This document shows positions 4,301-63,375 of a DNA stretch of 64,000 nt, piece after piece. A program made the translations under genes and the position numbers. The notes under the pieces were generated by a model that was given only the letters and a program-made list of their open reading frames with translations, made no database searches and had not been told where the DNA came from. The stretch comes from Diacronema lutheri (Eukaryota; Haptophyta; Pavlovophyceae; Pavlovales; Pavlovaceae): the NCBI GenBank assembly GCA_019448385.1, contig JAGTXO010000001.1, positions 1,736,001 through 1,800,000 of the forward strand, given 5' to 3'. How positions within the stretch are numbered: position 1 is the stretch's first letter; each line of letters begins with the position of its first letter.

Positions 4301-5743
4301 CTGTGGGGAGCAAACACTCGCGGCCAGCTTGGCCCAGCCGTGCCAATTTGGCCCGCACGCGTCCTCGGCGCCGACGCGGGCACGCGGCTCGCGCTGCCGG
4401 GCGGCGCGCGCGCGGTGAGCGCCTGCGCGGGCGCGGAGCTCACGGTCGCGCTCTCGGCTGACGGGCACGTCTTCTCGTGGGGGGCAAACGACGAGCTGCA
4501 GCTTGGGAGGCGTGCACACCGCGCGTTTGACAGCTCGCCCGCACGCGTGGCGCTACCTCTCGTCGATGGCGATTCGGCGCTGCAGGTGCGCCAGCAGAAC
4601 GGCCGCGCTGAGAGGGCTTTCGCCGTCTTTTCCCTTCTTCTCCCCTTACCCCCCCCCCCCCCCCCCCCCCCCCCCCCGCCAGCAGAACGGCCGCGCTGAG
4701 AGGGCTTTCGCCGTCTTTTCCCTTGTTCTCCCCTTACCCCCCCCCCCCCCCCCCCCCCCGCCCCGCTCTCTCTCGCCTGCCTCACACGCGCACCCCCTGC
4801 CATGGGCGCCCCCACCGCAGATCTCGTGTGGTGCGCAGCACGTGCTGCTCACTACGGCTAACGGGCATGGGCTCAGTTGGGGCAGTAACGTGCGCGCGCA
4901 GCCGCGCTGCGCGCGCGCACGCAACCCGCCCGCCGTCGCGCTTCCGCGCGCGCGCCGCCCACCGCCGCACGCTGCACCGCGCTGCACCACGCCGCGCGCA
5001 CGCAGGAGCACGAGCAGCTTGGGCGCGGCGCTGCTGCCGAGGAGTCGCTGGGCGAACTCGACGACGACGCGGCGGCGACGGCGCTGAGCCTCCCCGGCGC
5101 CGTCGAGCTTGAGCTCTACGAGGACGAGCACCTCTGGCAGATGCATGCCGGCCGCTCGCATTCCCTCGCCCTCAGCTCGTCAGGGTCGTTGATTGCATTT
5201 GGCAATTGCCGCGCGGGGCAGTGCGGGCTCGCGACGGGCGAGCCGGCGGCGCCCCCGCATGCGTCGTCCGGCAGCGCGCGCGCCGACGAGCCCGAACCCG
5301 CGCCGGCCGAGGGCGGGGCAACACGGCCGCGCGAACCTGCGCGCGGCGCAATGCCGCCGCGCGGGCCGCCGCGGCCGATGCGGTCGCCCGCGCAGGGCGC
5401 CGGTGCGGGCGCGGGGCGCGGCATGAACGACGGCGTGCGCGGCGTAGTCACTGACGCGCGCGCACAGCCGCCGCCGCCGGCGGCGCCGCCGCAGCGCGCA
5501 CGCGCGCAGGTGCGCGCGGGGACCCGCAGGCCCGAGCGGCACGGCGGCGACGCGCACGAGCCCGCGCCCGCCGAGAGGCGCGATGACGCTGCGCCGGCGG
5601 GCGCGACGGAGCCGAGCAGCCGCGCAGAGCGCCACGGCACGCCTGCGCGCGTGGCCGGCGAGCGCGAGCCGAGCACCGGTGTGCATGTGGGCGCTGACGC
5701 GGACGGCGTCGTGCAGCCGACGCGCCCGGCTCTGGAAGAATGA
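1334..5743 (+). CDS. Large RCC1-repeat protein with acidic and basic low-complexity inserts
   Basis: Join 1334..4585, 4821..4889, 5006..5743, giving 1352 residues. RCC1 propeller blades recur: LTAGSNRYGQLGRS, LTFGDNSNGQLGRA, LSAGENDVGQLGRH, IGWGSNEEGQLG, LAWGSNAHAQLGQ, HLWGANTRGQLGP, FSWGANDELQLGR. Both introns were placed because they restore a blade: exon 2 reads ISCGAQHVLL and then LSWGSN joined to EHEQLGRG from exon 3. An acidic insert (39-bp tandem repeat) and Gly/Arg-rich inserts interrupt the blades. Residues 1-20 (MRRSLLLTALLLRAG) look like a signal peptide or anchor, unusual for nuclear RCC1/RanGEF, so a Ran exchange role should not be assumed. The last 180 residues are Pro/Arg/Ala-rich with no recognised domain. 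The function is unknown beyond the propeller fold. Confidence 0.8.
2876..3148 (+). repeat. 39-bp tandem repeat, about 7 copies, coding
   Basis: Seven consecutive 39-bp units begin at 2876, 2915, 2954, 2993, 3032, 3071 and 3110; the last is degenerate. Because 39 is a multiple of three, each encodes a 13-residue acidic module (DGEYGEGDGDDDD and variants) inside the RCC1-repeat protein. Units differ mainly by GAT/AAT and CAC/TAC changes, which suggests recent expansion. Confidence 0.95.
4590..4759 (+). repeat. 88-bp tandem duplication with poly-C tails, inside intron 1 of the RCC1 gene
   Basis: Copy 1 covers 4590-4677 and copy 2 covers 4678-4759. Each begins GCCAGCAGAACGG and ends in a long C run (29 C at 4649-4677, 23 C at 4737-4759). 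The non-C parts differ by one base. Both copies lie inside intron 4586..4820. Run lengths may be affected by sequencing error. Confidence 0.9.
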
Positions 5744-52617: not shown

Positions 52618-52899
52618 CCTCGTGAGTCATGAGCGCTCTCCGACGCGACGCGCACGCAATATTATTCCGGCCTCGCTGCCCGCTCGCTGGTGACCGGGAT
52701 GCGCGGGGATGGACGACATTGGTGGCTACTCGATTCCCCCGCAGCTGGTGCTGACCCCGCTGTCCTGACGTAAGCGCCGTTAGTATATTATTCCGTGTGA
52801 ATTTTTACACAACATTTAACTTTGGGAAACACGTTTTCACCTTTTCGCCCTTTCCGCCTTTCCCCCTTCGCGCTCACGGCACGCTCGCGCACGCGAGCG
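52618..52899. promoter_or_regulatory. Intergenic region with A/T-rich patches upstream of the aspartic protease
   Basis: About 280 bp between RAD51D and the protease gene. An 11-bp motif ATATTATTCCG occurs twice, near 52660 and 52783, and an A/T-rich patch (GAATTTTTACACAACATTTA) lies at 52800-52819. In a genome this GC-rich such patches are notable and may be promoter elements; that is inference. Confidence 0.4.
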
Positions 52900-54060: not shown

Positions 54061-54425
54061 AATCAGGCGTGACGAACAGAAAATGTCACGTTTTTCTCTT
54101 TTTTTGTCGTCGACCCTGTGCACGCCGGCGGCGGGGACGGCCTGGACGGCAAGGACGCGGCAGGACGCGGCATGGGCGGACACCCACACACGCCTAGCCA
54201 CTTCTCGTCGGCCGCCGCCGCCGTCGCCGCGCCAGAAGCAGACGCCGTCCACACCGCCGCAGGCGTCCACATCCGCCTGGACGCCGCTCAGGCTCCTGCG
54301 GCGTGGCGGTGCGGCGGCGCCTGCCCGCGCGCCATCTGCGCACGCGCGAGCAGGACCTGCGCGTGCCCACGCACGACGCACGCGACGAGCTGTTAGAAGC
54401 CGGCGAGGGCGGAGACGCGAAAAGT
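54061..54425. other. Convergent intergenic region
   Basis: About 365 bp between the stops of the protease (plus) and the SDR (minus). A T-rich run (TTTTTCTCTTTTTTTG, about 54088-54105) may help 3' end formation. Short Pro/Arg-rich open frames are not supported as genes. Confidence 0.4.
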
Positions 54426-57246: not shown

Positions 57247-57362
57247 TCCGGCCTCCCGCAGCGCGGAAACTTCTCTGACTCCAGGTTTCGTGGCAAGCGC
57301 GAGGGGGAACGGCGAGAGGCGAAAGGACGGACGAGCGCGAGGGAGAGGAGGACGAGCGGGCA

Positions 57363-59399
57363 ATGCATCCCGGCCGGCTGGTCGACGCGCTCGTCGTCGC
57401 CGTCATGGCTGCTGCGCGCGGATCCGACGCGGCGGATATGTTGCTCACCGACGACGACGGCACGCAGCCAGGCCATTACACGCTTATTGAACGCCTCTCC
57501 TCCCCCGTCGCGACGGCCGCGCTGACGACGTGGGCGCCGCGCTACGCGGACGAGCACGCGCTCATGCTAGTGCGGCGCGTGATGCCCACGCCCCTCCCGC
57601 TCCCGCTCGTTCCGTCCGATGCACTTTCGTGGATGACGCACGTGCTCAGCTGGAGCTCACACCTGCTCGGCCACCCGGCGCTGAGCGACGCGGACGCCGA
57701 GGTTCTGCGTTGCCGGCCGTTCTACTACCTGGAGCAGCAGTTGGCGCGCGGTGGGCACGGCGAGGTATGGCGCGCCATGTCGAGCACGCCGCGCCACGGC
57801 GCCTACTCCTTCATTTTGAAGCGGATCTCGCGCGACGCGACAGGCGACGCGCACTACCGCTCGGGGCTGCGCGAGGCGCATTTTGGGCGCAAGCTGCGTG
57901 GCCTCCCGCACGTCGGCCGTTTCGTCGAGGCGTTCCGCGCGACGACGCGGGGCGAGGCAGGTCAGACCCTTTCCGTCGACGGCGAGCTGCGCGCCGCCGA
58001 CCCGCTCGACGGCGCCAGTCTGTGGCTCGCCTTCTTCGACGAGGGCGCATCGCTCCACGACCTCATGCACGAGCTCAGCGCGCCGGCGGGCGAGCGCCAG
58101 CCGGACGGGGAGGGCGACGCTGGCGGCGGTGGTGGCAAGGTCAGGCGCGCGGTCAACTTGAGCGAGGCCGTGGCCACCGCGCGCGCATGGCCGCGCGGCG
58201 GCGGTGCGGATGAGGGCGGCCGCACATCCGATGATGCGCTCGAGCGCGCGGCGCCGCACGCGGCCGAGGCAGGCGCGCCGGAGGCCGCGGCCAGCCTCTC
58301 GGCGCTCGGCTGGCTCGCCGCGCCACTTGGCGTGCGCACGCGCGGCGGTGGCGGTGGCGGCCGAGAAATGCAGCCATCGAGCGCGTGCGCGCTCGCGGCG
58401 GCGACGGCGGCGGCGAAGGTCACGACGGCAGCGGCCGCCGACGCCAACGCGATTGGCGCTGGCGGCGCGCAGCGCGGCCCGGACGCGCGCGACGAGCGCA
58501 CGCGCGGCGCCCGCGCTAGCGCGGGCGCGCCGCCGCCCGTGCGCTTCGTCGTGCCCTCCGCGCTGTGGCGCCGCACACGCACGCACTCCGATGGGCAGGC
58601 GGTGCTGCGCGAGATGATGCGGCAGCTGCTCGCCGCGCTCGCTCAGCTGCACGCGCGCGGGATCGTGCACCGCGACCTCAAGCCGTCGAACCTGATCGTG
58701 CGGCTCGAGCCGACGAGCGCGGAGCCGCGCACGACGCCGCGCGCCGACGACCTTGGCCTGCGCCTGCGGATAATCGATTTTGGCTCCGCCCTCGATGCCG
58801 AGGCGCTCGCCAACGAGCGGCTTTACCCGCCGGGCGCCGACCCGGCCGACGGCGAGACGGCCGCGTACTCGGCGCCCGAGATCGCGCTGCAGGACGGCGC
58901 CCCCATCGGCGCGCGCGCGCCCGCCTACGACCTGTGGTCCGTCGGAGTCATCCTGCTCGAGCTGCTGCTCGGCTCGGCCGACGTGTTCACACCGGACGCG
59001 CGCACGCACGCAATAATCGCGATCGCGCTCGGCGACGCGCCGCCGGCGGTGCAGAGGCGCGCGGCGCTCGCGCACGCTTGGGGGCGCCTCGGCATCCTCA
59101 GCCCAGCGTCGCGACGCGGCGCGAGCGACGCCGAGCGCGAGGCAGCGCGCTCGAGCTTCATCGCCGCGGTCCGCGAGCGCGACCCGCTCCCCGCGTTCGC
59201 CATTTCCGAGCGCGCGCTTGACCTCGCCTTCCAGCTGCTTCAATGGGAGCCAACGCGCAGAATCGCAGCAGAGGACGCGCTCGCGCATCCTTTCTTCCAC
59301 GCGCCCAGCTCGGCCGCGCAAATGGGCCTCGTGGCTGCGTCGCCGGGTGTGCGGAGCTTCAGTTCGAGAGGGAAGGCCTCCGACGCAAGCAGGCAATGA
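57363..59399 (+). CDS. Protein kinase with signal-peptide-like N-terminus and long inserts
   Basis: A 678-residue intronless kinase. The Gly-rich loop is QLARGGHGEVWRA (residue ~127), VAIK-like Lys in FILKRI, catalytic loop IVHRDLKPSNL (residue ~437), DFG in IIDFGSALD, APE in YSAPEIALQ, and subdomain IX YDLWSVGVILLELL; all catalytic residues are present. About 200 Gly/Ala-rich residues separate the N-lobe from the C-lobe motifs, a very long insert. Residues 1-25 (LVDALVVAVMAAARG) look like a signal peptide, so a lumenal, plastid or secreted kinase is possible, which is unusual. The subfamily is not identified. Confidence 0.78.
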   Translation: MHPGRLVDALVVAVMAAARGSDAADMLLTDDDGTQPGHYTLIERLSSPVATAALTTWAPRYADEHALMLVRRVMPTPLPLPLVPSDALSWMTHVLSWSSHLLGHPALSDADAEVLRCRPFYYLEQQLARGGHGEVWRAMSSTPRHGAYSFILKRISRDATGDAHYRSGLREAHFGRKLRGLPHVGRFVEAFRATTRGEAGQTLSVDGELRAADPLDGASLWLAFFDEGASLHDLMHELSAPAGERQPDGEGDAGGGGGKVRRAVNLSEAVATARAWPRGGGADEGGRTSDDALERAAPHAAEAGAPEAAASLSALGWLAAPLGVRTRGGGGGGREMQPSSACALAAATAAAKVTTAAAADANAIGAGGAQRGPDARDERTRGARASAGAPPPVRFVVPSALWRRTRTHSDGQAVLREMMRQLLAALAQLHARGIVHRDLKPSNLIVRLEPTSAEPRTTPRADDLGLRLRIIDFGSALDAEALANERLYPPGADPADGETAAYSAPEIALQDGAPIGARAPAYDLWSVGVILLELLLGSADVFTPDARTHAIIAIALGDAPPAVQRRAALAHAWGRLGILSPASRRGASDAEREAARSSFIAAVRERDPLPAFAISERALDLAFQLLQWEPTRRIAAEDALAHPFFHAPSSAAQMGLVAASPGVRSFSSRGKASDASRQ

Positions 59400-60137: not shown

Positions 60138-60225
60138 GGCCGCCACCGCCGGCCCCCGCCCGCGTTAGCGTCAGAGGGGCCCTTGACGGGCGTCCCCGTT
60201 CCGCGTACCCCACCCAAAACACCTT

Positions 60226-60827
60226 GGGAGTTCCGTACTTTTCGACGTTTCAAACTTCGCCTCCGTACTTTTAGACAATTCGTCGAAAAGTACGGAGGCG
60301 CCGTCGAAAAGTACGGAGGCGCCGTCGAAAAGTACGGAGGCGCCGTACTTTTCGACGTGTCATTCCGTACTTTTCGACGCGCAGCTGAACTCATTTAGCT
60401 CTCTGCTGCTTGAGCTCCGGGCAGCTCCTCTTGTTGTGCCCGGGCCTCCCGCACTGCTTGCAGCAGTTCTGCTTCCGCGCGTTCACTTCGCCATGCGGCT
60501 GCTGCTGCGCGCCCATGCTTGTCTTGCGGCGCTTTTTGGGAACGTCTTCAGGCGAATCATCGTAGTCCTCCCAGCCCTCCTCGCCGCCGGCCGGAGGGGG
60601 CGCCGGCGCCGGCGAGCCGGCCACAGCAAAGCAGTGGCCGCACAGGTAGTCGCCGTCGCCCTCGCCGTTGCAGACCTTGTCGCAGAAGATGGCCGTGTGG
60701 ATAGTTTTGGGTCCAGCGTCGAAAAGTACGGAGTCCGGGCGGAGTCCGGGCAAAAGTTTGCAAACACTTTGGAAGTGTCTAAAAGTACGGAGGCAAAGTT
60801 TGAAACGTCGAAAAGTACGGAACTCCC
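60226..60827. mobile_element. Non-autonomous Mutator-like element (52-bp TIRs, 9-bp target duplication)
   Basis: The left end 60226-60277 (GGGAGTTCCGTACTTTTCGA and on) and the right end 60776-60827 are inverted copies of each other over 52 bp with one mismatch. The 9-bp sequence AAACACCTT directly abuts both ends (60217-60225 and 60828-60836), a target site duplication. Long TIRs with 9-bp duplications are the hallmark of Mutator-like elements. Subterminal GTCGAAAAGTACGGAGGCGCC is tandemly repeated three times (60282-60344) with further inverted copies to 60380 and again near 60718. The interior carries only a zinc-knuckle reading-frame fragment, so it is non-autonomous. It sits 48 bp beyond the stop of the CNB-domain gene. 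Confidence 0.8.
60391..60750 (-). pseudogene. Transposon-internal reading-frame fragment with CCHC zinc knuckle
   Basis: An open frame of about 120 residues without an ATG near its beginning. It contains a Cys-rich stretch (FCDKVCNGEGDGDYLCGHC) and ends with a CCHC zinc knuckle, CKQCGRPGHNKRSC, just before the stop. Such knuckles are common at the C-terminus of MuDR-type transposases. No catalytic DDE region is present, so it is read as the leftover 3' end of a transposase or a captured gene fragment inside the inverted-repeat element. Confidence 0.5.
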
Positions 60828-60883
60828 AAACACCTTTGTCGCCTCTGATCAGAATGCTGACTTCAAAAAGCAGTCACTCCGAC

Positions 60884-63333
60884 TCACTCGGCGTCGGCCG
60901 ACGCGAGTGCCTCGGCCCAGCGCGCCTCCAGCGCGTGGGTCCGGTTGAAGAGCTTCCAGCCCGCATGCGACTGCAGCGCCTCCTTGCCGAGCGACGCGAC
61001 CAACGCCTGGCTCGCCTCGTTTGACGAGCGCTGCGCCTTGGCGAGCGCGGGCGAGTGCGCGCGCACAATGGCCGACGGGCGCGGCGATGCGTGCTTCGCC
61101 GGCGGCGAGCCGGTGCGCGCGGGCGACGAGGCGCGAATGTGGCCGCCTGCGCTGGCCGGCCGCTCGCTCTCCGCGCGCTGCGCTCTGCGCAGCTGCGGGA
61201 GCTGTGGCGCCACGTACACGACTCGCACGTGCGCCACGTCCACCGTGGCGGGGCCAGCGGCCCGGCGCAGGCTCGGTGGCGTGCTCGGCGGATTGTGCGC
61301 GTGTGCGATCACCTGCGCGCGCATCGCCGCCTGGCGCGCCCGCTCGCGCCTCGAGTCGATGAGCTGCGGTATACGTATGAAGCAGACCACAGCTCGCAGC
61401 GCGACGGCCATGCGGCCTTTGGTGAGACGCGCGTGGAGTGGCGTGTGCTCGAGCCCAACGGGCGACACGCGATCGCCCGTGTCGGCTGCGCTCGTCGCCT
61501 GCCGCGCCAAAGCGGGCGAGAGGGGCGTGCGCTCGGCTGGCGCGTGTGCACGCAGCCCGAGCACCGCACGCGGTGACGGTGTCGTCGGCGCCTCGCCAGG
61601 CGGGAGCTGCGGCGCACGCGACGGCACAAACGTCGTCTCCTCCGACTCGGAGGCGGGCATGTCCGAGTCGGTCGCCGAGCAGCGCGGCGGGCGCGAGCGC
61701 TGGCGGTGCGGCGCAGGTGAGGCCGGCGCGGCCGGCGCGGCCGGCGCGGCCGGCGGCGCGGCCGCGGTCGCGTTCGCACCGCGCCGCTCCGCGCTGCTGC
61801 CCGCCTGCGCGGCAGCGTGCGCGCCGGGCATCGCCGTCGCGCCGTACACCAGCCGTCTGAGCTCGCGGAAGTGCTCGGTGATCGTCGGGTGGAGAAGCAC
61901 AAGGCGGTCGAGTGACTCAGCGCCCATCGAAAGGAGAATCGACGGCTCAGATGCGCAGGCGGACGCAGAGCGCGGCTTGCCGGGCTGAGCGTATCGTGGT
62001 GCGGCACGCGCGAGGTGCGCGCGGCGCGCGGGTGGTGCGATTGAGCTGCGCGCCGCGTGCGTGGCGCGCGGCGGCGCGCGGCCGCGCGCGCGGCGCTCAC
62101 GCTGAAGAGCGCGAGCTCGCCGAAGAAGGGCGACGTGTCCGTGTGCCGGATGAGGCGCACGTGCCGAATGCTCCCGTCCTCGAGTGGCACCTCGATCGCG
62201 ATCGCACCGGCGACGATCAAGAAGAAGAGCGTGCCCGCCTGCCCCTTGCTGAACACGTATTCGCCCGAGCGCAGCAGCCGCACTTGGAAGAGGTCGGCCG
62301 TCGCGGCCGCGACGCGCTGCGTCGCGCCGTGGAAGAGCGAGAGCGACTGCACCATGCTCGCGCGCCATCGAGCGACGGCGACGCTTGCGAGCGCGCGCGC
62401 GGCGGTCTCGAGCTCGCCCGTGAGGCTCAGCCTGCGGACGGGAACCTTGCGGAGCGCGTGCGCGGGCACTCTGAGCGCCCTGCCAGACTCGATGCACTCG
62501 ACGGTGTCGGGGCGCCAGTGCACGGGCAAGCGCTCGGCATCAGCCTTGCTCACCGAGTGAGCCGGCTGCGCGCGGGAGAGCGCACTGAGCAGCGCCGACT
62601 CGCCGAAGAGCGCGCCGGCGCGCAGCGCGTGCGGTTTTGCGAGCAGCGGGTGGACGGCCACGGCGCCGTCGGCGATGATGAAGACGCACTCAGCCGGCGA
62701 GCCAAAGCGGTAGACCGGCTTGTACCGCTCGATGGGCACCAACTCCGACTCGTCGGCGATCGCATCGAGCACGCGAGGCGGCCACGCCCTCGCCTGTGGG
62801 CCGACGAACACGTCACAGCTGTTCAGCACGTCGAGCTTCTCGCGGCGCAGCACGGCGACCGCGAGGTGCGCCGAGTGCACGACGCGCGCCAGGTGCGCAT
62901 CCGTGGAGGGCTGCTGCGAGGCCATCGGATGGTCCGGCAGCGCAACCGTGTCAAACCAATGGTCGAGGGTGGGAAGCTCGCCCGCGCGCGTGTGCGCCCC
63001 GAGCGAGTTGGCGGATCGCGCGGCCGACGCGCGGGCGGAGCGCGCATCGGCGGCCTGCGGGTCGCCGCCCTCGGTCGGAAGCGCAAGCAAGCGCATATCG
63101 ACCGCAGCGACGGACATTCGCGCATGCTCATCGTCTGCGCCGTTGCTCAAATTTGGCGCAGTTGGCGCCGATGGCGCCGCGGATTCAAGCGAGGCGCGGG
63201 GCGCGCTCGGGCTCACGCCGAGCCGCTTTGCTTTGCTCGTTGCAGCGCAGCCGCGCCAGCGGATGGCCACGAGCGCGTGCGCCGTATGCGCGACGCCGTG
63301 GCCCGATAGGCTCGCGAGGCTGCTCGCCGTCAT
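60884..63333 (-). CDS. Protein with two cyclic-nucleotide-binding-type domains
   Basis: Join on the minus strand 63333..62101, 61984..60884, giving 777 residues. The first CNB-fold domain is near residues 190-260 (RFGSPAECVFIIADGAVAVH, RAGALFGESALLS), the second near 345-450 (LRSGEYVFSKGQAGTLFFLI, SPFFGELALFS then PGKPRSASACASE across the intron), with the phosphate-binding-cassette pattern F-G-E-L-A-L and P-R-S-A. The intron join (GTGAGC donor, phase 0) completes that cassette. No kinase or channel domain is seen. The C-terminal ~300 residues are disordered with an ending KLFNRTHALEARWAEALASA. A cAMP/cGMP-responsive adaptor is possible; nucleotide binding is not proven. Confidence 0.75.
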
Positions 63334-63375
63334 TGGACCTCACATCATCCAATGACATCCATGGCGCCGAGGGCG

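What the first reader, a model, noticed from the sequence alone, without database searches (positions are those of the whole stretch)
60217..60836. Non-autonomous Mutator-like element with intact ends and target duplication
52-bp terminal inverted repeats with one mismatch and a perfect 9-bp duplication AAACACCTT on both sides are direct evidence of transposition; near-identical ends suggest a recent event. The interior has short tandem and inverted GTCGAAAAGTACGG motifs and a CCHC zinc-knuckle fragment. MULEs with 9-bp duplications are known in plants and fungi; one in an alga with this end sequence would be a useful handle on a new family.
Basis: partly seen in the sequence, partly recalled or inferred. 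Interest (0 to 1): 0.75.

Follow-up and report, generated by a model that had tools for sequence, protein, structure and literature searches.

The report
Short jumping gene in a microalga
This is a short, probably recently moved piece of a Mutator-type jumping gene in a marine microalga, cut down from a larger gene-carrying version also found in the same genome; it is a new branch of a familiar kind rather than a new kind.

Summary
Confirmed. Window 60226-60827 is a 602-bp element with 52-bp terminal inverted repeats (one mismatch) and a perfect 9-bp duplication AAACACCTT. The genome matches Diacronema lutheri, a haptophyte alga. I group its matches into about 33 loci. Of 24 copies with both ends placed, 18 have perfect duplications. 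The nearest copy, with unrelated flanks, differs by 1 of 602 bases.

Longer copies (5.8-5.9 kb) share the ends and encode a Mutator-type DDE transposase (weak Pfam matches), zinc-binding segments and an OTU-protease-like segment. The window element is a deletion derivative; its CCHC fragment is the end of the transposase gene, not captured host DNA.

Targets are 89.5% A+T in a 73% G+C genome.

It works like a MULE and meets the tested features, except that the zinc fingers are inconclusive and tree placement is untested. No full-length copy examined is plainly intact, so present activity is unshown. OTU-carrying and A+T-targeting MULEs have precedents; haptophyte MULEs were not found in the literature searched. 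New member of a known kind.

The parts
60217..60225 (.). left target-site duplication AAACACCTT
60226..60827 (-). 602-bp non-autonomous element (strand = direction of the transposase-gene remnant)
60226..60277 (.). left terminal inverted repeat, 52 bp, one mismatch with the right arm; corresponds to the 3' end of the full-length element
60281..60343 (.). three tandem copies of a 21-bp unit holding the GTCGAAAAGTACGG motif; fewer motif copies at the matching end of the long copies
60394..60703 (-). 3' coding remnant of the transposase gene (part of a Cys-rich PHD-like segment and the C-terminus)
60421..60462 (-). CCHC zinc knuckle CKQCGRPGHNKRSC
60703..60704 (.). internal-deletion junction (long-copy locus L011 position 426 joined to 5687, 2-bp CT microhomology, so the exact break is ambiguous by 2 bases)
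60776..60827 (.). right terminal inverted repeat, 52 bp; corresponds to the 5' end of the full-length element
60828..60836 (.). right target-site duplication AAACACCTT

Best explanation
A non-autonomous Mutator-like (MULE) cut-and-paste element of a D. lutheri family. SHOWN: shared ends; 9-bp duplications; many copies, at unrelated sites; longer copies with the same ends encoding a DDE transposase; one internal-deletion junction in the short class. INFERRED: transposase made by a 5.8-kb copy binds the repeated GTCGAAAAGTACGG sites in the ends, excises the short copy and joins it across a 9-bp stagger in an A+T tract, and host fill-in gives the duplication. INFERRED: the short form arose when repair of an excised long copy closed early at a 2-bp microhomology, and then spread in trans in at least two recent bursts.
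For: Same ends at many loci. 18 of 24 copies with both ends placed have a perfect 9-bp duplication. The junction 426/5687 was checked in four short copies: the same 2-bp overlap in L039 (window), L029 and L018, and an 86-nt insert in L019. Window copy vs L028: 1 mismatch in 602, no flank similarity by blastn. Five 2.8-2.9-kb copies share another deletion (443/3364, 6-nt filler) and a 3.4-kb copy has a 118-nt filler. Transposase: MULE PF10551 E 7.2e-5 and 2.3e-4, below the curated cut-off; two of the family's copies just over it (27.8 vs 27.6 bits) and three just under in the genome scan. D, D, CxxH and E agree in the 10-row alignment wherever a row covers them (the first D in three rows only). 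A GT-AG intron of 85-87 nt was found in 9 of 11 copies checked, with no stops in the flanking exons of those nine. Summed pN/pS is 0.40 and 0.26 for the two catalytic exons (11 and 8 copies).
Against: No transposition was observed. No full-length copy examined is plainly intact: L011 (duplication 9/9) has D for the catalytic E; L010 has all the catalytic residues but no matching duplication and Trp for a Cys in the Cys-rich segment; C34 lacks its 3' end and C71 both ends. Pfam MULE matches are weak. pN/pS sums pairs that are not independent, and single pairs of long copies are not low (L010-L011 1.53, L011-L070 0.91 in the second exon); it is 1.0 for the C-terminal part and 1.24 for the linker after the OTU segment, and the OTU segment has no synonymous differences. 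L017 has stops in its transposase frames. No empty site found (loci in hand only).
Confidence: 0.93

Rival explanations
1. Pack-MULE: the interior is a captured host gene fragment (a zinc-knuckle gene).
For: The interior holds coding-like sequence with a CCHC knuckle.
Against: The interior is collinear with the 3' end of the family's own long copies and joined by a simple deletion; a related protein P0005 from another source has a similar Cys-rich segment and knuckle downstream of the DDE core.
Confidence: 0.03
2. The 2.9-kb class, not the 5.8-kb class, supplies the transposase: the catalytic core alone is enough and the N-terminal and OTU parts are dispensable.
For: Five loci share one deletion; four of them keep both catalytic exons open with D, D, CxxH, E (L013 has a further deletion in the first exon but keeps the residues); three of the five have perfect duplications.
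Against: The deletion removes the upstream exons including the putative DNA-binding segment, and the shared filler junction shows it is derived. A start codon in frame upstream of the core was not shown.
Confidence: 0.2
3. The family is dead; near-identity of copies reflects gene conversion or segmental duplication, not recent jumps.
For: No clearly intact long copy among those examined.
Against: The window copy and L028 are one base apart yet have different duplications and unrelated flanks; 18 of 24 duplications are still perfect.
Confidence: 0.15
4. A different superfamily with 8-9 bp duplications (hAT, P, Merlin; lengths recalled) moved it.
For: Duplication length alone does not exclude these.
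Against: The transposase between the same ends matches MULE and, more weakly, Transposase_mut models and no other transposase model at E <= 1.
Confidence: 0.03

Closest known systems
Muta1 of Aedes aegypti (Phantom group), PMC5225508 (passages read)
   Same: 8-9 bp duplications, many non-autonomous derivatives sharing the ends, short tandem subterminal repeats, DDE transposase
   Different: Muta1 has 145-bp ends built of 12-bp repeats, is 3198 bp, and shows little or no target sequence preference; here the targets are A+T tracts and the long copy has an OTU-like segment
MuDR-6_HM of Hydra, listed in Dupeyron et al. 2019 Table 1 with 'Ovarian Tumour Gene' (PMC6446971, section 6 read)
   Same: MULE with an OTU-type segment
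Rehavkus, outgroup in the same table
   Same: 9-bp duplication and a PHD finger are listed for it; the Cys-rich segment here is PHD-like by eye
   Different: A C-terminal minisatellite is listed for Rehavkus; relationship not tested
Maize Mu/MuDR and other plant MULEs with Ulp1 protease (Ulp1 point from PMC2836005 passages; the rest recalled)
   Same: 9-bp duplications, internally deleted derivatives, zinc-binding segments; a ubiquitin-type protease is associated in some
   Different: Ulp1 instead of OTU-like protease; different ends
MuTAnT of Medicago and, as cited there, AhMITE of peanut (PMC4486113, passages read)
   Same: MULEs inserting into A+T-rich sites (AhMITE: A+T-rich but not microsatellite); 9-bp duplications in the MuTAnT copies outside microsatellites; microsatellites described as 'safe havens'
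   Different: Plant families; MuTAnT targets mainly (TA)n microsatellites; here mixed A+T 9-mers in a 73% G+C genome

Membership tests
Mutator-like elements (MULE superfamily) | Target-site duplication of 8-11 bp (range from PMC6446971) | tested here: met
   9 bp; of 24 copies 18 perfect, 1 with 8/9, 3 with 7/9, 2 without. The edges of two perfect ones (L021, L037) were set knowing the duplication.
Mutator-like elements (MULE superfamily) | Terminal inverted repeats (14-500 bp in PMC6446971) | tested here: met
   52 bp with one mismatch
Mutator-like elements (MULE superfamily) | DDE transposase of MULE type between the same ends in a family member | tested here: met
   PF10551 weak; D162, D261/D263, C282..H285, E362 of the L010 frame. 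Most Pfam scores are below the curated cut-off; two family copies exceed it by 0.2 bit.
Mutator-like elements (MULE superfamily) | Zinc-binding domains (SWIM, CCHC, FLYWCH and others in PMC6446971 Table 1) | tested here: inconclusive
   CCHC pattern clear by eye; SWIM-like CC..PCHH and an N-terminal C-x4-C..HxC segment by eye only; Pfam gave no SWIM, FLYWCH or CCHC hit on the D. lutheri frames. Motif patterns recalled.
Mutator-like elements (MULE superfamily) | Placement inside the MULE tree | not tested
   No labelled reference transposases were in hand
Non-autonomous internal-deletion derivative (MITE-like) | Keeps both ends of a longer family member, interior removed at one junction, multiplied as a uniform class | tested here: met
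   Junction 426/5687 (four copies); 14 copies of 570-602 bp align throughout
OTU cysteine protease (in the 5.8-kb copies) | OTU fold with catalytic Cys and His | tested here: inconclusive
   For: PF02338 E 0.03 for the whole frame, 0.0048-0.0082 for the cut-out segment of three nearly identical copies, all below cut-off; 10 of 13 PDB profile hits are OTU domains at E 0.13-0.73 (one is named ubiquitin thioesterase, that the polymerase- or replicase-labelled chains are viral OTU domains is recalled); GNC and GGHY kept by eye. Against: a single-sequence PDB search gave 4 hits, none an OTU; protein search found no relative at E <= 0.001; Lys replaces the usual Asp of DGNC (recalled); fold model unusable (pLDDT 34.6).

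The most novel reading that the evidence does not exclude
An OTU-protease-bearing MULE lineage in haptophytes whose transposase machinery reads A+T tracts as targets, so that in a 73% G+C genome it is steered to rare non-coding islands; the OTU part, fused to or co-expressed with the transposase, would take part in transposition or protect the transposase from ubiquitin-dependent removal.
Probability: 0.25. Interest if true: 0.6.

Novelty: new member of a known kind. Interest (0 to 1): 0.4.

Why it matters
It gives a fairly complete picture (full-length, 2.9-kb, 0.6-kb and 107-bp forms with the same ends) of a MULE family in a haptophyte, a group not among the six eukaryotic groups in the survey section read. 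The target preference is sharp enough to be a test case for how MULEs choose sites, and recent short copies could serve as strain markers in an alga used in aquaculture. The OTU-like segment adds to the scattered link between transposases and ubiquitin-type proteases.

Tried and rejected
Structure prediction did not help: mean pLDDT 48.1 for the transposase frame and 34.6 for the OTU segment, so no fold search was run. OTU relatives: 662 candidates, none at E <= 0.001; a single-sequence PDB search gave four hits, none an OTU. Viral contigs: one stretch matched a pattern and none encoded a relative (the tool warns that near records may be left out). Searching with the 10-row alignment raised relatives from 9 to 17, all unnamed or 'hypothetical protein'; only P0009 carries a precomputed Pfam label, MULE. 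Empty sites: joined flanks of 21 copies against the loci in hand plus the window gave no spanning match; the whole genome was not searched for them. A swapped-flank idea for the neighbouring inverted copies L009 and L010 (8 of 9 bases agree on one side, 6 of 9 on the other, by eye) was left unproven. Selection on the OTU segment: no synonymous and up to 5 non-synonymous differences among four copies, no sign of constraint.

Literature, PubMed Central open-licence library only, no bioRxiv set. Haptophyte MULEs: one search listed two papers; their passages report Mutator-like elements in diatoms and mention haptophytes only for retrotransposon sequences, or only in reference lists. One search listed one paper, not opened. 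One search required only two of its three terms; its 10 listed rows all show no 'Pavlova lutheri', and 1,895 were not listed. One search listed three papers, one of them opened. OTU with MULE: one search listed none; (192 papers held three of five terms, 20 listed) I opened passages of seven: PMC6431247, PMC6875170, PMC11069148, PMC2613891, PMC6446971, PMC13359780 and PMC5225508; one search listed seven (one opened, PMC2836005); one search listed three, none opened. The only OTU-MULE pairing seen is the Hydra entry. My recollection that the Phantom group carries an OTU domain was not confirmed by anything read. Supplements were not read.

Full report
OBSERVATION. The 9-bp duplication AAACACCTT is at 60217-60225 and 60828-60836, the element between is 602 bp, and its ends agree at 51 of 52 positions. 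Among 32 inverted pairs of 30 nt or more within 8 kb in the window, the 25 longest were listed, and this is the only listed pair above 90% complementarity.

ORIGIN. The window is positions 1736001-1800000 of contig C9 in an assembly of 43,492,796 bases and 103 contigs; C9 is 3,042,068 bases long. The Diacronema lutheri paper (PMC8379373, passages read) reports 43,502,671 bp, 103 contigs, a longest contig of 3.042 Mb and 73.25% G+C. The identification is an inference, but a strong one. The word stem 'transpos' does not occur in that paper's main text as held; its repeat section names LTR and LINE elements as the majority of annotated repeats (its supplement was not read).

FAMILY. A search of the own genome with the 620-bp stretch gave 126 matching pieces (40 of 44 candidates scored, so a lower bound). 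I group them by eye into about 33 loci. DNA was fetched. For 24 copies both ends could be placed: 18 have identical 9-bp duplications, one 8/9, three 7/9, two none. For two of the 18 (L021, L037) I set the edge knowing the duplication. Rearranged or truncated loci (on C75, C89, C34, C71, C47, C12 and one of two on C46) were not in that count. The smallest copy, L025, is 107 bp, little more than the two ends, and has a perfect duplication.

AGE. In an alignment of 16 short copies (window included), the window copy differs from L028 by 1 of 602 bases and from the C46 copy by 2 of 585; the other 13 differ by 9 to 18. Members of a second group differ from one another by as little as 1 base. L028 and the window copy have different duplications and no flank similarity by blastn. 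So at least two recent bursts are likely (inference).

TARGETS. The 18 perfect duplications are 89.5% A+T, 17 of 18 with at least 7 of 9; in the window 0.52% of 9-mers reach that. The observed mean is 8.06 A/T per site; 20,000 draws of 18 window 9-mers had mean 2.47 and maximum 4.0. Outside the site the A+T fraction drops apart from the base on each side (0.83 and 1.00); the next nine positions lie between 0.22 and 0.72. A sharp peak like this points to insertion preference rather than purging of harmful insertions alone (inference). The 90-nt flanks of 21 copies show weaker codon periodicity than the window (0.152 vs 0.210, p = 4e-4) and lower G+C (63% vs 73%) (the background windows overlap, so p is approximate), so they look mostly non-coding. 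The window copy has the least A+T-rich site (6 of 9) of the 18. It lies between a protein-kinase frame (57279-59396, plus strand; PF00069 E 1.3e-25) and a minus-strand frame (60887-62539, no Pfam hit) whose stop is just right of the element; an overlapping minus-strand frame (61312-63339) carries a cNMP-binding domain (PF00027 E 1.4e-12). Gene models are inferred.

LONG COPIES. Two copies have both ends at 5.8-5.9 kb: L011 (perfect duplication) and L010 (no matching duplication). C34 has lost its 3' end and C71 both ends. Reading 5' to 3' they hold an OTU-like frame, a segment with a C-x4-C ... H-x-C pattern (a GCM/WRKY-type finger by recollection, no Pfam hit), a DDE core, a SWIM-like segment, a Cys-rich PHD-like segment and a CCHC knuckle. 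The DDE core matches Pfam MULE at E 7.2e-5 and 2.3e-4, below the curated cut-off. In the genome-wide scan two of the family's copies pass the cut-off by 0.2 bit while three fall just under it. Relatives align over D, D, CxxH and E. Between the first and second D lies an 85-87-nt GT-AG intron, found in 9 of 11 copies checked, with no stops in the exons of those nine; L017 has stops. pN/pS, summed over pairs, is 0.26 and 0.40 for the two catalytic exons and 0.40 for the putative DNA-binding exon. Against this, single pairs of long copies reach 1.53 and 0.91, the C-terminal part gives 1.0, the linker after the OTU segment 1.24, and the OTU segment shows no sign of constraint.

OTU. Three nearly identical copies match PF02338 at E 0.0048-0.0082 when the segment is cut out, 0.03 for the whole frame, all below the cut-off. 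A profile search of solved structures returned 13 chains; 10 of them are, by name or recollection, OTU domains, at E 0.13-0.73. A single-sequence search returned four chains, none an OTU. The residues around the would-be catalytic Cys and His are kept, but Lys replaces the usual Asp. I call this OTU-like, not proven. Whether OTU and transposase form one protein is unknown.

HOW THE SHORT FORM AROSE. The 602-bp form equals the first 426 positions of locus L011 (flank included, so about 125 bp of element) joined to position 5687 onward, with a 2-bp CT overlap, and with a 21-bp subterminal unit present three times. Five 2.8-2.9-kb copies share a different deletion with the 6-nt filler AGTCTG; L017 has a 118-nt filler; L019 has an 86-nt insert at the 602-type junction. 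Such scars fit interrupted repair of an excised copy (known for plant elements, recalled).

SISTER FAMILIES. Transposase relatives at about 50-54% identity occur at other loci. Three of them (L065, L066, L069) end in 68-70-bp inverted repeats of a different sequence; L069 has a perfect 9-bp duplication TTTTGTCTT, L065 8 of 9, L066 none convincing. Further MULE lineages with stronger Pfam scores are also present (14 matches above 60 bits).

COMPARISON. A eukaryote-wide survey (PMC6446971; section 6 read whole, passages elsewhere) lists MULEs in animals, fungi, amoeba, stramenopiles, parabasalids and plants; its Table 1 lists one OTU case, MuDR-6_HM of Hydra. Ginger transposons and some Helitrons carry OTU, and some Mutators carry Ulp1 (PMC2836005, passages). 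Muta1 shows little or no target sequence preference (PMC5225508, passages); MuTAnT targets TA microsatellites and cites AhMITE for A+T-rich sites (PMC4486113, passages). So each trait has a precedent; the combination and the host were not found in the searches made, which cover open-licence papers only and whose listed papers were opened only in part.

VERDICT. A real, probably recent, ordinary-in-kind non-autonomous MULE with its full-length relatives identified. Present activity, the OTU role and the place in the MULE tree remain open.

Noticed in passing
window 52666-52789 and 54108-54230: Stretches similar (91-93%) to sequences that flank other insertions of this family (L017, L035); A+T-rich 9-mers of the window also occur near here, so these may be another repeat family.
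   Followed up: no
L065, L066, L069 (contigs C82, C15, C71): A sister MULE family of about 2.5-3.1 kb with 68-70-bp ends beginning GGGGGAACAGCACTTTTAGGCG; one perfect and one 8/9 9-bp duplication among three.
   Followed up: partly
L076-L085 and four more places: 14 places with strong MULE-domain matches (62.9-67.1 bits), ten of them in frames of 525-899 aa: other, more canonical MULE lineages in the same genome.
   Followed up: no
L009 and L010 (C69, about 0.75 kb apart, inverted): Neighbouring inverted copies, neither with a matching duplication; one flank pair agrees at 8 of 9 bases across the two elements when reversed, which would fit an inversion between them (by eye).
   Followed up: no
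L011 (C69:535355-541178): The best-bounded full-length copy has Asp in place of the conserved catalytic Glu.
   Followed up: partly
L020 (C46:423552-424630): Two short copies overlap and share an end in inverted arrangement, a nested or fold-back insertion.
   Followed up: no
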